NCBI RefSeq assembly: GCF_002252525.1
Contig: NZ_NNRM01000022.1
Location: 62,001-126,000, forward strand
DNA length: 64,000 bases
Direction: 5' to 3'
Source of the DNA: Brucella pseudogrignonensis
GTDB lineage: Bacteria > Pseudomonadota > Alphaproteobacteria > Rhizobiales > Rhizobiaceae
Shown: piece by piece, positions 2,511-49,710 of the stretch
Numbering within the stretch: position 1 is the stretch's first letter
How the letters are laid out: each line of letters opens with the position of its first letter
Program-made: the position numbers and the translations under genes
Notes under the pieces: model-generated
Databases searched by the model: none
Told to the model about the DNA's origin: nothing
The model's input: the letters and a program-made list of their open reading frames with translations, nothing else

Positions 2511-3812
2511 TCAGCCGAAAACGCGCTTGAAGATCGTATCAACATGTTTGGTGTGATAGCCAAGATCGAACTTTTCGCGGATTTGTTCTTCGGAAAGTGC
2601 TGCACGCACTTCCGCGTCACCGAGCAGTTCTTCGAGGAAGTCCGCACCCTGTTCCCAGACCTTCATGGCATTGCGCTGCACGAGGCGGTAGGAATCTTCA
2701 CGCGAAACGCCAGCCTGTGTGAGTGCGAGCAGAACGCGCTGCGAATGCACAAGACCACGGAACTTGTTCATGTTTTTCAGCATGTTTTCCGGGTAGATCA
2801 CCAGCTTTTCGACAACGCCAGCCAGACGGTTCAGCGCAAAGTCGAGTGTGATGGTGGTGTCTGGGCCAATTGCGCGTTCAACGCTCGAATGCGAAATATC
2901 GCGTTCATGCCAGAGGGCAACATTTTCCATTGCAGGCACAACCGACATACGTACCAGACGGGCGAGGCCGGTCAGGTTTTCGGTCAGGACAGGGTTGCGC
3001 TTGTGCGGCATCGCCGACGAGCCTTTCTGGCCGGGCGAGAAGAACTCTTCCGCTTCCAGAACTTCCGTACGCTGCATGTGACGGATTTCGATGGCTACGT
3101 TCTCAATCGACGAAGCGATGACGCCGAGCGTTGCAAAGAACATGGCGTGACGGTCGCGCGGAATAACCTGCGTTGAAACTGGCTCTGCTTCGAGACCGAG
3201 CTTTTCGCAGACATATTCTTCAACGCGTGGATCGATATTGGCGAAGGTGCCAACAGCGCCCGATACGGCACCGGTCGCGATTTCTGCGCGTGCTGCAACG
3301 AGACGCGCGCGGTTCCGTTCCATTTCGGCGTAGAAACGTGCGAAAGTCAGACCCATTGTGGTTGGTTCGGCATGAATGCCATGGCTACGGCCGATACGAA
3401 CGGTATCCTTGTGTTCAAATGCGCGCTTCTTAAGCGCTGCAAGCACACGATCCATGTCTGCGAGAAGCAGATCAGCTGCGCGAACGAGCTGCACATTGAG
3501 CGTGGTGTCGAGTACGTCCGACGAGGTCATGCCCTGATGCACGAAGCGGCTGTCTGGGCCGATGAATTCTGCCAGATGCGTGAGGAACGCGATGACGTCA
3601 TGTTTGGTGACGGCTTCGATTTCGTCGATGCGCGCGACGTCGAACTTGGCGGCATCACCCTTTTCCCAGATGGTCTTTGCGGCTTCTTTAGGGATTACGC
3701 CGAGTTCGGCAAGCGCCTCACATGCATAGGCCTCAATTTCGAACCAGATGCGGAATTTGGTTTCGGGAGACCAGATGGCGACCATTTCTGGTCGGGAATA
3801 GCGCGGGATCAT
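2511..3812 (-). CDS. purB: Adenylosuccinate lyase
   Basis: The enzyme performs two beta-eliminations in purine synthesis: SAICAR to AICAR plus fumarate, and adenylosuccinate to AMP. The 433-residue product has the N-terminal MIPRYSRPEM, the TSSDVLDT segment, SHGIHAEP, and the flexible signature loop GSSAMPHKRNP of the fumarase/aspartase superfamily. ATG 3812 is preferred over ATG 3818 because the AGG at 3821-3823 sits 8 bases from the former and 2 from the latter. It lies last in the minus-strand run acpXL to purB. Confidence 0.97.
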   Translation of the reverse strand: MIPRYSRPEMVAIWSPETKFRIWFEIEAYACEALAELGVIPKEAAKTIWEKGDAAKFDVARIDEIEAVTKHDVIAFLTHLAEFIGPDSRFVHQGMTSSDVLDTTLNVQLVRAADLLLADMDRVLAALKKRAFEHKDTVRIGRSHGIHAEPTTMGLTFARFYAEMERNRARLVAARAEIATGAVSGAVGTFANIDPRVEEYVCEKLGLEAEPVSTQVIPRDRHAMFFATLGVIASSIENVAIEIRHMQRTEVLEAEEFFSPGQKGSSAMPHKRNPVLTENLTGLARLVRMSVVPAMENVALWHERDISHSSVERAIGPDTTITLDFALNRLAGVVEKLVIYPENMLKNMNKFRGLVHSQRVLLALTQAGVSREDSYRLVQRNAMKVWEQGADFLEELLGDAEVRAALSEEQIREKFDLGYHTKHVDTIFKRVFG

Positions 3813-46352: not shown

Positions 46353-47759
46353 TTACGCGTTGTTGCCGAGCCATTCCTGGAAATCGGCGAGTGCGCGTGC
46401 AGATAGCGCACGCTTTTTTGCAAGCGTCTTTTCCTTGCCGCGCAGCCGCTTGCCTTCTGGTTTAGGCACGTCGATTGGTGGGAACAGACCAAAATTCACG
46501 TTCATTGGCTGGAATGAGCGTTTACCCGGTTCATCGTCGTCAGCAACAATGTGGCCGCCAGTGATATGGCCGAGCAGCGCACCAAAAGCTGTGGTCTGCG
46601 GCGGTGCCACCGGTGTCTTGCCAAGCTTTTCAGCAGCGGTGAAACGTCCGGCCAGCAGTCCGATTGCCGATGATTCGACGTAACCTTCACAGCCGGTAAT
46701 CTGGCCAGCGAAGCGCAGGTTTTCGCGAGACTTCAACCGCAGCACATTATCGAGCAGCACTGGCGAATTGAGATAGGTGTTGCGGTGCAGGCCGCCAAGA
46801 CGCGCAAATTCTGCATTCTCAAGGCCGGGGATCATTTTGAAGATGCCGGTCTGCGAGCCGTATTTCAATTTCGTCTGGAAACCGACCATATTGTAGAGTG
46901 TGCCAAGCGCATTATCCTGACGCAACTGCACGACCGCATAGGCCTTGACCGTCGGATTGTGCTCATTGGTGAGGCCCATTGGCTTCATCGGGCCATGGCG
47001 CAAGGTTTCCGGGCCGCGTTCGGCCATCACTTCGATAGGCAGACAGCCATCGAAATAGGGCGTGCCTTCCCATTCCTTGAAATCGGTCGTGTCGCCTTCG
47101 ATGAGGGCAGCAACGAAAGCCTCATACTGCTCCTTGTCCATAGGGCAGTTGATGTAGTCCTTACCGGTGCCGCCCGGCCCAACCTTGTCATAGCGCGACT
47201 GGAACCAGCACACATCCATATTGATCGAATCAAAATGAATGATCGGCGCGATGGCATCAAAGAAAGCGAGCGCATCAGCACCTGTTTGTGCTTGAATCGC
47301 TTCTGCAAGAGTCGGCGCAGTCAGTGGGCCGGTCGCAACAATCGTCGTGCCCCAGTCTTCGGGCGGTAGGCCGGTGACTTCTTCGCGCTCGATTGTAATC
47401 AGCGGGTGCGCTTCTAGTTTTGCAGTCACTGCCTGCGAAAAGCCTTCGCGATCGACCGCGAGTGCGCCACCAGCTGGGACCTGATGTGCGTCGGCACAAG
47501 CCATAATCAGCGAGCCTGCAAGGCGCATTTCGGCATGAAGTACGCCGACGGCATTGGTCTCAGCGTCGTCCGAGCGGAAAGAATTCGAGCAGACCAGCTC
47601 TGCAAGCTGCTCCGTCTTATGCGCGTCTGTGCCGCGAACGGGGCGCATTTCATGCAAAACCACAGGAACGCCAGCCTGCGCAATTTGCCACGCGGCTTCG
47701 GAGCCTGCGAGGCCGCCGCCGACGACATGTACGGGGGAGAGATTGGTATCTTTTGACAT
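46353..47759 (-). CDS. trmFO: Methylenetetrahydrofolate--tRNA-(uracil-5-)-methyltransferase
   Basis: A 468-residue FAD enzyme forming T54 in tRNA from methylene-THF. It shows [75 protein letters not shown] and [14 protein letters not shown] 47759 is preceded by a near-perfect AGGAGGT (47774-47780). Upstream is a hairpin array with loops complementary to that Shine-Dalgarno. Confidence 0.95.
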
Positions 47760-47839
47760 GGCAAATCCCTTACCTCCTTTGAATGTCGCCTTCAATGGGA
47801 GAAGCGCATCAGAGCAGGGAACCTATACCACAAAAACAA

Positions 47840-47877
47840 ATGGCATCCGGCGCGGGAGGAGGTGCGACGGATGCCAT
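47840..47877 (-). ncRNA. CcsR/cuckoo-like hairpin 4 (last in array)
   Basis: On the minus strand, a 10-bp stem ATGGCATCCG/CGGATGCCAT, extended by CGC/GCG, presents CCTCCTCCC (47854-47862) in the loop. It is followed by TTGTTTTTGTGG on the minus strand, so it could also be the terminator of the array. Confidence 0.75.
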
Positions 47878-47884
47878 TATTGTC

Positions 47885-47916
47885 AGACCGGAATTGGGAG
47901 GAGGAGAGACCGGTCT
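47885..47916 (-). ncRNA. CcsR/cuckoo-like hairpin 3
   Basis: Stem AGACCGG/CCGGTCT with loop containing CCTCCTCCC (47896-47904) on the minus strand. The stem sequence is unrelated to the other three, while the loop motif is identical. Confidence 0.75.
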
Positions 47917-47921
47917 AGGTA

Positions 47922-47953
47922 TCGCAAAGCATGGGAGGAGGAGTGCTTTGCGA
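47922..47953 (-). ncRNA. CcsR/cuckoo-like hairpin 2
   Basis: Stem TCGCAAAGCA/TGCTTTGCGA (10 bp) with loop CCTCCTCCC (47933-47941) on the minus strand. Confidence 0.78.
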
Positions 47954-47959
47954 CGAACC

Positions 47960-47987
47960 GGGCCTGATGGGAGGAGGATTCAGGCCC
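47960..47987 (-). ncRNA. CcsR/cuckoo-like hairpin 1 (first after DUF1127)
   Basis: Stem GGGCCTGA/TCAGGCCC with loop CCTCCTCCC (47969-47977) on the minus strand, 17 bases past the DUF1127 stop codon. Confidence 0.78.
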
Positions 47988-48004
47988 AGCAAAGTCAAAT
48001 CTGA

Positions 48005-48151
48005 TTAGCGTCCCTTGGACTGACGTGCGACAAACGGAATGTCTGCGCGGGAAATGCCAAGATCGTTAAGTTCGCGAGTCGAAAGCTGGTTAAGCTCGTT
48101 GACAGTATCGCGGTAACGGCGCCAGTTGTTGTATGAGCGAAGCAGGTTCAT
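48005..48151 (-). CDS. DUF1127 small arginine-rich protein
   Basis: A 48-residue protein, MNLLRSYNNWRRYRDTVNEL at the N-terminus and ELNDLGISRADIPFVARQ in the middle, matching the DUF1127 (YjiS-like) domain. It is preceded by AAGGAA at 48158-48163. In Rhodobacter sphaeroides a DUF1127 gene (CcaF1) precedes and is co-transcribed with the CcsR1-4 small RNAs, and its product affects RNA maturation. The same order is found here, which suggests an analogous stress-linked transcript. Confidence 0.9.
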   Translation of the reverse strand: MNLLRSYNNWRRYRDTVNELNQLSTRELNDLGISRADIPFVARQSKGR

Positions 48152-48208
48152 CGTTTTATTCCTTCATCTTTGAGGAACTGTGGTTCAATTCATCTCGTTG
48201 TGTTGCCC

Positions 48209-48237
48209 ATTATATAACTCATTGTTTTCGCTACTTG
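48209..48237 (-). promoter_or_regulatory. Putative promoter of the DUF1127/hairpin transcript
   Basis: A perfect TATAAT (48214-48209, minus strand) lies ~58 bp before the DUF1127 start. The hexamer 17 bases further upstream is CAAGTA (48237-48232), a poor sigma-70 -35, so an alternative sigma factor or an activator may be needed. Confidence 0.45.
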
Positions 48238-48370
48238 CAGACCCGAGTTTGCATAGCTGCTCTGCGGGTTCTGCACGACGGACTAAATCGATTAGACTGT
48301 TCAGGCACAAAATTGCCGTAAAGGACCTCGACCTAACTATTTGCCGGCTGGCGAGTTTCTTATATGTTTC

Positions 48371-48448
48371 CTAGTGGATTGAATTTGACGTTTGGACACG
48401 GACCGACATACATGCTGCTCCAAACGTCAAATTCGAAAAATCCACTAG
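48371..48448. repeat. Long inverted repeat 1 (26-bp stem)
   Basis: Outer arm CTAGTGGATT (48371-48380) pairs with 48439-48448; inner 16-bp arm GAATTTGACGTTTGGA (48381-48396) pairs with 48419-48434. A 4-base bulge (48435-48438) separates the two stems on one side. The loop is 22 bases. Confidence 0.9.
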
Positions 48449-48460
48449 ATTCATAATATT

Positions 48461-48537
48461 GCTGGTGGTTTTTAGGTTCCGATATTTGTTCAACGCGAGT
48501 CTCATCCGGTTGCAAATATCGGAATCTAACCACCAGC
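48461..48537. repeat. Long inverted repeat 2 (26-bp stem)
   Basis: Outer arm GCTGGTGGTT (48461-48470) pairs with 48528-48537; inner 16-base arm TAGGTTCCGATATTTG (48473-48488) pairs with 48513-48528, with one G-T pair. A 2-base bulge separates the stems. The loop is 24 bases. Same design as repeat 1, twelve bases away, but no sequence in common. Confidence 0.9.
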
Positions 48538-48585
48538 CACTTGGATTAAACTTCGTATCAACGGATAGATTGTTCGGGAGTTGTT

Positions 48586-49710
48586 TTGTCGTTTTCAGTT
48601 TCAGTAGAGCGCCTGATCGAGCGATGGCAGCATGATGGCCTTATCGATGCCGACACGGCTTCGCGGCTGAATGCCGATCTTGAAAAACGTGGCCCCCGGT
48701 TCAGTCTCGGCTCGGTTCTCGCAACACTTGGCGGGCTGTTGCTTGGCGCTGCGGTCATCATGCTGGTTGCAGCCAACTGGCAGGATATGCCGCGCATCAT
48801 GCGTATCGGTCTTATCTTCGCATTGATCTGGGTGTGCTATATTGGCGGCGCATGGCGTGAGCTGCGCGGCGACAAGCTGTTACCGCAGGTGCTCTATATA
48901 ATAGCTGCAGCATCATTCGGCGCAGGCATCGCACTTGTTGGTCAGATGTATCACCTGTCAGGCGATGTTCATTCGGCGGCTGTGGTCTGGGCGGGCGGTG
49001 TTCTTGTAGCAGCGTTTCTGCTGCGCTCTCCGGTTCTGACTGTGTTTGGTGCAGCCGTCGCCTGCTTTTATTTGGGGACCTATGCGTTCAGCAACGAATA
49101 TGGCGACCTGAATTACCGATGGGTAGGCCCGTTGCTGGTTCTGGTTGGAGCAGTTGCTGCGCGTTTCACGCAATCCCGCCACGCAGCCCATTTATGGTGC
49201 CTGTTCGTTCTCGGCTGGGCGGTGCTTCTTTATTCTGAAAACGAAAGCCGGGCGATTCTCGGCATGATGCTGGTTATCGGTATTGCTTTCATGCTCGCCG
49301 ACGCCTTTGCCCATGATGCGCTTCAGAAGCTCACACGCTTTGCGCATCCGCTGGCATCTTATGGCCTGCTGCTTGCGCTGTTGGCGCTTGGCATTCTGCA
49401 AGTCGACAAGATGCTTTCCATCATCTTTGATAAGAACATCACGCAGGATGTCGTCTATGGCATTCTCATTCTGGCGCTATCGATCGGTTCGTTAGCTGTA
49501 TGCGGGCGAGACAATGGCAGCTTGCGTTCCATTGCCTATGCAGCTTTCTCGTTTGAAGTGCTTTATCTGGCCTTCTCGACGGTGGGTTCGATGATCGGTA
49601 CATCAGGTTTCTTCCTCACGGCAGGTGTGCTGGTGCTGCTCCTTGCAGCCTTCGTGCGACGTATGGAGAGCCGGTTCGGGCGAAAGCGCCAAGTGGAGGC
49701 AAAACCATGA
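48586..49710 (+). CDS. DUF2157 membrane protein
   Basis: A 374-residue protein. Residues 1-~45 form a soluble domain (SVERLIERWQHDGLIDADTASRL), followed by RFSLGSVLATLGGLLLGAAVIMLVAANW and about ten further hydrophobic segments. The start is TTG 48586 behind CGGGAG. It overlaps the next gene by four bases (ATGA), so the pair is co-translated. Function unknown. Confidence 0.88.
   Translation: MSFSVSVERLIERWQHDGLIDADTASRLNADLEKRGPRFSLGSVLATLGGLLLGAAVIMLVAANWQDMPRIMRIGLIFALIWVCYIGGAWRELRGDKLLPQVLYIIAAASFGAGIALVGQMYHLSGDVHSAAVVWAGGVLVAAFLLRSPVLTVFGAAVACFYLGTYAFSNEYGDLNYRWVGPLLVLVGAVAARFTQSRHAAHLWCLFVLGWAVLLYSENESRAILGMMLVIGIAFMLADAFAHDALQKLTRFAHPLASYGLLLALLALGILQVDKMLSIIFDKNITQDVVYGILILALSIGSLAVCGRDNGSLRSIAYAAFSFEVLYLAFSTVGSMIGTSGFFLTAGVLVLLLAAFVRRMESRFGRKRQVEAKP

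What the first reader, a model, noticed from the sequence alone, without database searches (positions are those of the whole stretch)
47840..48151. DUF1127 gene followed by four tandem hairpins with identical anti-Shine-Dalgarno loops
Four consecutive hairpins on the minus strand have unrelated stem sequences but the same loop, CCTCCTCCC, at regular ~36-42 bp intervals, starting 17 bases past a 48-codon DUF1127 gene. Stems that vary while the loop is fixed point to selection on RNA. In Rhodobacter sphaeroides the DUF1127 gene CcaF1 and CcsR1-4 (CCUCCUCCC motif, also called cuckoo RNAs) have exactly this order and are stress-induced. The last hairpin is followed by a U-rich tract, suggesting the end of the transcript. 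No such array would be found by gene callers, and the DUF1127 gene is short enough to be missed.
Basis: partly seen in the sequence, partly recalled or inferred. Interest (0 to 1): 0.85.

Follow-up and report, generated by a model that had tools for sequence, protein, structure and literature searches.

The report
Small-protein gene with cuckoo-RNA hairpin array
This stretch holds a small-protein gene (DUF1127) followed by four RNA hairpins that all display the same loop able to pair with ribosome-binding sites, a known type of regulatory RNA locus in alphaproteobacteria, here with an upstream DNA site that suggests which regulator switches it on.

Summary
CCTCCTCCC occurs four times in the 64 kb window, all on the minus strand (47854-47977), each in the loop of a stable hairpin, starting 14 bases past the stop of a 48-aa DUF1127 gene. 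Stems covary in an alignment of 25 loci. It is a new member of a known kind. The host is a Brucella of the former Ochrobactrum group. ar14 matches occur in 35 of 35 genus genomes and 116 of 121 family genomes searched.

What I add: a box resembling the published VtlR/LsrB operator starts 113 bases before the DUF1127 start codon, above a TATAT element. On the same strand, 79 of 81 related loci have a box of at least 11/15, against 41 of 961 control pieces. The likely model is a VtlR/LsrB-activated transcript of about 375 nt giving a protein and anti-Shine-Dalgarno sRNAs. Ten plasmid DUF1127 loci lack this box, though six keep arrays. Expression, processing and targets are untested; one predicted target failed a conservation check.

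The parts
48005..48151 (-). DUF1127 small-protein gene, 48 aa (stop codon 48005-48007)
   Evidence: ORF; PF06568 63.2 bits; 266 related stretches in genome contigs, best 80 kept
47957..47990 (-). hairpin 1, 11-bp stem, aSD loop CCTCCTCCC at 47969-47977
   Evidence: 7 of 11 pairs with changes on both sides; outside the Rfam ar14 hit
47921..47954 (-). hairpin 2, 11-bp stem, aSD loop at 47933-47941
   Evidence: 5 of 11 pairs with changes on both sides; within the RF02344 hit
47884..47917 (-). hairpin 3, 8-bp stem, 18-nt loop with aSD at 47896-47904
   Evidence: 2 of 8 pairs with changes on both sides; weakest of the four folds (z -2.93)
47839..47878 (-). hairpin 4, 14 pairs in the single-sequence fold, aSD loop at 47854-47862; probable intrinsic-terminator stem
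   Evidence: of the 13 pairs counted, all cells paired, 1 pair with changes on both sides
47830..47838 (-). U-rich tail after hairpin 4 (probable transcript end)
   Evidence: sequence; not listed by the consensus scan, whose loop limit is 8
48250..48264 (-). VtlR/LsrB-like box CAGAGCAGCTATGCA (12 of 15 to the published CAATGCAGCCATGCA)
   Evidence: motif text from PMC12595884
48209..48216 (-). TATAT(AAT), probable -10 element; start of transcription inferred near 48202
   Evidence: TATAT follows the box within 60 nt in 51 of 51 loci with the core box CAGC[TC]ATGC; no sigma-70 match in the consensus scan; start point is inference
47838..47958 (-). Rfam ar14 (RF02344) match covering hairpins 2-4
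   Evidence: 84.7 bits, E 7.7e-14
46353..47759 (-). trmFO, downstream neighbour (context, not part of the element)
   Evidence: PF01134; NF003739 and TIGR00137

Best explanation
The locus is a cuckoo-RNA (ar14/CIN1-type) operon. One minus-strand transcript of about 375 nt would start near 48202, encode a 48-aa DUF1127 protein, and end at hairpin 4. Its 3' part carries four hairpins that present an anti-Shine-Dalgarno 9-mer. By analogy with ccaF1-CcsR1-4, RNase E cuts the transcript into a small mRNA and several sRNAs (inferred). By analogy with NfeR1, the redundant CCUCCUCCC loops pair with Shine-Dalgarno regions of selected mRNAs and block translation (inferred). The promoter carries a VtlR/LsrB-like box, so the LysR regulator VtlR/LsrB probably activates it (inferred from sequence conservation). 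Shown here: gene, array, covarying stems, conserved box and TATAT, presence of a LysR gene behind trxB. Not shown: transcription, processing, regulator binding, targets.
For: Four exact motifs, 0 of 100 shuffles. Fold z -9.48. Rfam ar14 above cutoff. Alignment A2 of the window plus L008-L031 (25 rows, 24 distinct): 95.6% of cells paired, 15 of 43 pairs with changes on both sides, 0 of 500 shuffles reach any of the five measures, and slid controls fall to 28-39% paired. Of 80 related DUF1127 loci, 73 have at least one exact 9-mer within 320 nt of the stop and 78 have at least two aSD hairpins; of 2206 control pieces 2 have a 9-mer, 35 have one hairpin and 0 have two. Box of at least 11/15 on the same strand within 200 nt upstream in 79 of 81 loci against 41 of 961 control pieces; at least 12/15 in 56 of 81 against 12 of 961 (with both strands counted, 81 of 81 against 72 of 961). 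Seven exact CANNGCAGCYATGCA in the 5.5 Mb genome, 3 of them just upstream of DUF1127 genes. LysR-type gene directly after trxB, the position described for vtlR (PMC7486931). LsrB activates the ar14 member NfeR1, whose aSD motifs silence ntrB (PMC10746234). VtlR activates three DUF1127 genes in Brucella (PMC12595884).
Against: No expression data. In this genome one DUF1127 gene (L091) has the best box (14/15) but no array, so box and array are separable. Four of the 7 exact box matches are not next to any of the 7 DUF1127 matches, and the one-mismatch search gives 29 matches against 14 for the reversed control. Only 51 of 81 loci have the core CAGC[TC]ATGC; L048 and L070 have no same-strand box of 11/15. 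Ten plasmid DUF1127 loci score at most 10/15, although 6 of 10 have arrays. In B. melitensis a fourth DUF1127 gene lacks the VtlR motif and rises in the vtlR mutant (PMC12595884). The loci are related, so these counts are not independent events. The predicted target mce keeps the full complementary 9-mer in only 6 of 28 genus genomes in which its start could be read, this genome included.
Confidence: 0.72

Rival explanations
1. Same operon, but the hairpins act mainly in cis: they stabilise or terminate the DUF1127 mRNA or are bound by the DUF1127 protein, with no trans-acting sRNA role.
For: Hairpin 4 looks like a terminator. DUF1127 proteins can act without any RNA role (PhoR contact; PMC12501420, passages). 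My one conservation test of a trans target was negative.
Against: A cis role does not explain why the 9-mer is held while stems drift: of 260 hairpins detected below the 80 related DUF1127 genes, 199 have the full 9-mer and 248 TCCTCCC at the loop. The hairpins were found by a TCCTCC-like seed, which favours such loops. Four ar14 loci of the same genome have no DUF1127 gene next to them.
Confidence: 0.15
2. Classic Rhodobacter arrangement: RpoHI/RpoHII-driven heat and oxidative stress operon, with the VtlR-like box incidental.
For: ccaF1-CcsR1-4 has an RpoHI/RpoHII promoter (PMC10253847, passages).
Against: A rough RpoH-like pattern (recalled, not from a call) is found in 2 of 81 loci against 34 of 961 control pieces. 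The same-strand box sits 96-131 nt before the ATG in the 79 loci that have it.
Confidence: 0.15
3. The array is read from the plus strand and its GGGAGGAGG loops soak up CsrA (RsmZ-like sponge).
For: The plus-strand loops would contain GGA, the core CsrA site (recalled).
Against: No CsrA (PF02599) match in the genome, while the control rings in 3 of 14 named genomes. Box, TATAT, gene order and U-rich tail all point to the minus strand.
Confidence: 0.01
4. Low-complexity or mobile-repeat artefact without function.
For: A dispersed palindromic repeat does lie nearby (48385-48545; 7 further places in the genome).
Against: That repeat is outside the array. The array stems covary and ar14 is found in 35 of 35 genus genomes.
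Confidence: 0.01

Closest known systems
Cuckoo RNA family / CIN1 locus; Rfam RF02344 ar14; S. meliloti SmelA075 (3 hairpins) and SmelA099 (4 hairpins)
   Same: Several hairpins with CCUCCUCCC loops and variable stems, several copies per genome (PMC3927594 section 2.7), often with a short DUF1127 gene (PMC10253847 passages).
   Different: Nothing essential. Four hairpins here, of which Rfam covers three; the site before trmFO is shared by 52 of 83 loci tested.
ccaF1-CcsR1-4 of Rhodobacter sphaeroides
   Same: DUF1127 gene followed by four CcsR RNAs and a terminator (PMC10253847).
   Different: CcaF1 has 71 aa, here 48. The Rhodobacter operon has an RpoHI/RpoHII promoter; here a VtlR/LsrB-like box. 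RNA binding is shown for CcaF1, not for this protein.
NfeR1 (Smr14C2) of S. meliloti
   Same: ar14 RNA with redundant aSD loops and an LsrB-bound promoter (PMC10746234).
   Different: Three-hairpin 123-nt RNA with its own promoter. The window array lies behind a protein gene and has four hairpins.
VtlR-activated DUF1127 genes of Brucella (bab1_0914, bab2_0512, bab2_0574) and atu1667
   Same: Short DUF1127-type genes under VtlR (PMC12595884, PMC7486931; passages).
   Different: Described as small-protein genes; no array is mentioned in the passages I read. Orthology to the window gene was not tested.

Membership tests
Cuckoo RNA / ar14 | Tandem hairpins with CCUCCUCCC loops and non-conserved stem sequence | tested here: met
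Cuckoo RNA / ar14 | Rfam RF02344 score above gathering | tested here: met
   84.7 against 58.8 bits, hairpins 2-4 only
Cuckoo RNA / ar14 | Stem pairing kept by compensatory change | tested here: met
   15 of 43 pairs, 0 of 500 shuffles
Cuckoo RNA / ar14 | Several copies per genome | tested here: met
   7 in this genome
Cuckoo RNA / ar14 | Transcribed and processed to sRNAs | not testable with these tools
   no RNA data
Cuckoo RNA / ar14 | aSD loops silence mRNAs in trans | tested here: inconclusive
   9 full-complement sites before ATG in the genome, 2 of them antisense to arrays; mce site kept in 6 of 28 genomes
CIN1 locus / ccaF1-CcsR | Short DUF1127 gene directly upstream, same strand | tested here: met
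   78 of 80 related loci have at least two aSD hairpins
ccaF1-CcsR | RpoHI/RpoHII promoter | tested here: inconclusive
   rough recalled pattern absent at the window; 2 of 81 loci against 34 of 961 controls
ccaF1-CcsR | DUF1127 protein binds RNA and aids RNase E maturation | not testable with these tools
   literature conflict: CcaF1 binds RNA, no evidence for YjiS (PMC12501420)
VtlR/LsrB regulon | Operator-like 15-mer upstream at promoter distance | tested here: met
   12 of 15, 113 nt before ATG; 79 of 81 loci at 11/15 or better on the same strand
VtlR/LsrB regulon | Regulator gene present | tested here: met
   LysR-type gene directly after trxB (PF00126 and PF03466); identity as VtlR rests on position
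VtlR/LsrB regulon | Binding and activation | not testable with these tools
   no binding or expression data
NfeR1-type stand-alone ar14 | Own promoter, no protein gene directly upstream | tested here: not met
   array starts 14 nt after the DUF1127 stop

The most novel reading that the evidence does not exclude
In Brucellaceae and Phyllobacteriaceae, DUF1127 genes under a VtlR/LsrB operator are often dual operons that also make cuckoo anti-Shine-Dalgarno RNAs. VtlR/LsrB would then control DUF1127-linked and, through NfeR1-like loci, stand-alone members of one aSD-RNA class. Effects so far credited to DUF1127 small proteins in this regulon could belong partly to the RNAs.
Probability: 0.45. Interest if true: 0.6.

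Novelty: new member of a known kind. Interest (0 to 1): 0.4.

Why it matters
The locus itself belongs to a described family, so its discovery value is modest. Its use is that it ties three literatures together: cuckoo RNAs with DUF1127 (Rhodobacter), LsrB-activated NfeR1 (Sinorhizobium) and VtlR-activated DUF1127 genes (Brucella, Agrobacterium). If the box is functional, deletion studies of VtlR-regulated DUF1127 genes need re-reading, because such a transcript may also carry regulatory RNA that a deletion did or did not remove. In the listings of my seven paper searches and the passages I read, I saw no statement of this link. Many subscription papers are not held, among them the cuckoo RNA paper and the B. 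abortus small-protein paper.

Tried and rejected
CsrA sponge on the plus strand: set aside, no CsrA match in the genome.

Target prediction by full complement GGGAGGAGG N3-12 ATG: 9 sites in the genome against 1 for the reversed control; 2 of the 9 are antisense to the arrays. The other seven start a methylmalonyl-CoA epimerase, a FadB/FadJ-like frame (best hits below their curated cutoffs, only the first 500 aa given), a GntR-like frame (by eye), a 115-aa frame with no NCBIfam hit, and three short or doubtful frames of 55, 5 and 20 aa. The epimerase site is not conserved: 6 of 28 readable of 30 genomes, this genome included. I claim no target. The other candidates were not followed.

AbcR loci as a route to vtlR: no LysR-like frame seen among the longest frames of the fetched flanks; found through trxB instead.

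Class-wide exact triple-motif search: only the window's own genome of 289. The sample was spread over the class, with only 3 other genomes of the same order, so it says little about the family, where 116 of 121 have an ar14 match at E 0.001 and 108 of 121 pass the cutoff.

RpoH pattern: recalled and loose; no signal.

Consensus scan of 47700-48600: no sigma-70 match and no terminator at hairpin 4.

First alignment A1 had the window end misplaced by five bases; replaced by A2. A2 used 24 of the 80 genome-contig loci (L008-L031) plus the window; the other 56 were left out as not clearly the same array.

Papers not held: PMC4615179, PMC6112010, PMC8034643; statements about them rest on how other papers cite them.

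Full report
Observation. The motif CCTCCTCCC occurs four times in the window, all on the minus strand, at 47854, 47896, 47933 and 47969 (0 of 100 shuffles reach four, the largest reaches two). Each copy is in the loop of a hairpin (hairpin 3 is the weakest, z -2.93, 3 of 200 shuffles as good). The 163-nt array folds at -69.1 kcal/mol, z -9.48, 0 of 200 shuffles as good. The DUF1127 gene at 48005-48151 is supported by Pfam (E 1.9e-17). The array begins 14 bases after its stop. The 9-mer is identical in all four; loop lengths are 12, 12, 18 and 10 nt.

Known family. Rfam's ar14 model (RF02344) matches 47838-47958 on the minus strand at 84.7 bits, cutoff 58.8, covering hairpins 2 to 4. The described cuckoo family has three- and four-hairpin members with the same loop and variable stems (PMC3927594, section 2.7 read). 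[quoted passage not shown] The locus therefore belongs to a known kind.

Host and spread. The closest DUF1127 relatives with a plausible label are in Brucella species of the former Ochrobactrum group, for example 98% to B. gallinifaecis; a 100% match is in a record labelled Xylophilus, probably mislabelled. ar14 matches occur in 35 of 35 genomes searched in the genus. In the family it is 116 of 121 at E 0.001 and 108 of 121 over the cutoff. This genome has seven ar14 loci. Three follow DUF1127 genes: the window, and L006 and L007, whose loops are partly shortened. Four stand without an adjacent DUF1127 gene (L001, L002, L004, L005). The genome has seven DUF1127 matches in all.

Selection on RNA. 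I aligned the window with L008-L031, 25 rows and 24 distinct. For the window's 43-pair structure, 95.6% of cells pair, 15 pairs have changes on both sides, and none of 500 shuffles reaches any of the five measures; sliding partners by one to three columns drops pairing to 28-39%. Hairpins 1 and 2 carry most of this (7 of 11 and 5 of 11 pairs). Hairpin 4 hardly varies, so it says little. Relatedness of the rows inflates such counts, and the structure came from one of the rows.

Array and gene travel together. Of the 80 loci kept from 266, 73 have at least one exact 9-mer within 320 nt of the DUF1127 stop, and 78 have two or more aSD hairpins. Of 2206 control pieces from the same loci, 2 have a 9-mer, 35 have one hairpin and 0 have two. 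Of 260 hairpins, 199 keep the full 9-mer at the loop and 248 keep TCCTCCC; the hairpin finder starts from a similar seed. These loci were chosen by protein similarity to the window gene, so the figure is for this subfamily; in this genome 3 of 7 DUF1127 matches have arrays. trmFO lies in the locus in 52 of 83 loci tested, the window included.

Promoter. The published VtlR motif CAATGCAGCCATGCA (PMC12595884, passages) matches 12 of 15 bases at 48250-48264, starting 113 nt before the start codon. On the same strand, the best match in the 200 nt upstream is at least 11/15 in 79 of 81 loci against 41 of 961 control pieces, and at least 12/15 in 56 of 81 against 12 of 961. The two misses are L048 (10/15) and L070 (9/15). 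With both strands counted the figures are 81 of 81 against 72 of 961, and 16 of 405 shuffles. In the 79 loci the box starts 96 to 131 nt before the ATG. Fifty-one of 81 have the core CAGC[TC]ATGC, and TATAT follows within 60 nt in all 51. In the whole genome the form CANNGCAGCYATGCA occurs exactly 7 times, 3 of them upstream of DUF1127 genes. The genome has a LysR-type gene directly after trxB, the place described for vtlR (PMC7486931, passages). LsrB, the same regulator in Sinorhizobium, binds and activates the ar14 RNA NfeR1 (PMC10746234, passages).

Against this. One DUF1127 gene of the genome has a 14/15 box and no array (L091). With one mismatch the box gives 29 matches against 14 for the reversed control, so weak matches alone mean little. 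In B. melitensis a fourth DUF1127 gene lacks the motif and rises in the vtlR mutant (PMC12595884). Ten plasmid DUF1127 loci from rhizobia and relatives, chosen from 60 listed of 303 records, reach at most 10/15. Six of the ten have arrays: four exact motifs in L183, L184, L185, L188 and L189, and three shortened loops in L182. Four have none. Seven of the ten share another upstream word, GCATGGGTG, followed by TATAT in 6 of those 7. The module may therefore have different switches in different lineages.

Mechanism. I think it most likely that VtlR/LsrB activates one transcript that gives the DUF1127 protein and, after processing, aSD sRNAs that compete for Shine-Dalgarno sequences. The sRNA action is inferred from NfeR1, where three redundant aSD motifs silence ntrB. 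The processing is inferred from CcaF1-CcsR. My own target test was negative for mce: 6 of 28 genomes keep the 9-mer. What DUF1127 does is disputed: RNA binding for CcaF1, PhoR contact for Agrobacterium proteins, no evidence of RNA binding for YjiS (PMC12501420, passages).

Novelty. A new member of a known kind. The added idea is that VtlR-regulated DUF1127 genes can be dual protein-sRNA operons. I saw no such statement in the listings or in the passages I read; key papers were not held.

Noticed in passing
window 48385-48545: Two long imperfect palindromes (fold z -5.78) that belong to a dispersed repeat: 9 matches in this genome, namely itself, its own inverted half and 7 other places at 74-97% identity. 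Looks like a short palindromic mobile repeat; lies upstream of the box and is not part of the array.
   Followed up: partly
L089/L006 and L092/L007: Two further DUF1127 genes of the same genome have three-hairpin arrays whose loops are mostly shortened to TCCTCCC, suggesting diverged aSD variants.
   Followed up: partly
L091: A short DUF1127 gene with the best VtlR-like box among the seven DUF1127 matches (14/15, 118 nt before ATG) but no aSD array; a stand-alone ar14 lies about 2.6 kb downstream.
   Followed up: partly
L038 downstream of the DUF1127 gene; G425:C1:3182853-3183288: Array growth: six exact 9-mers after one DUF1127 gene in Phyllobacterium phragmitis, and three ar14 matches in a row about 157 bp apart in an unnamed family genome.
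   Followed up: no
L008, L056, L073: Records labelled Xylophilus (a MAG) and Bacillus subtilis hold DNA that looks like Brucellaceae; probably mislabelled or contaminated assemblies.
   Followed up: no
L008 about 3291-3299: The fourth hairpin of this near-identical locus has a changed loop (CCTCCTTCC), so single aSD loops can drift.
   Followed up: no
L180-L189: Plasmid DUF1127 loci share another upstream word, GCATGGGTG (7 of 10), with TATAT after it in 6 of those 7; possibly a different operator.
   Followed up: partly
L182: In the Aureimonas plasmid copy an annotated LysR-family regulator lies directly upstream of the DUF1127 gene and its three-hairpin array.
   Followed up: no
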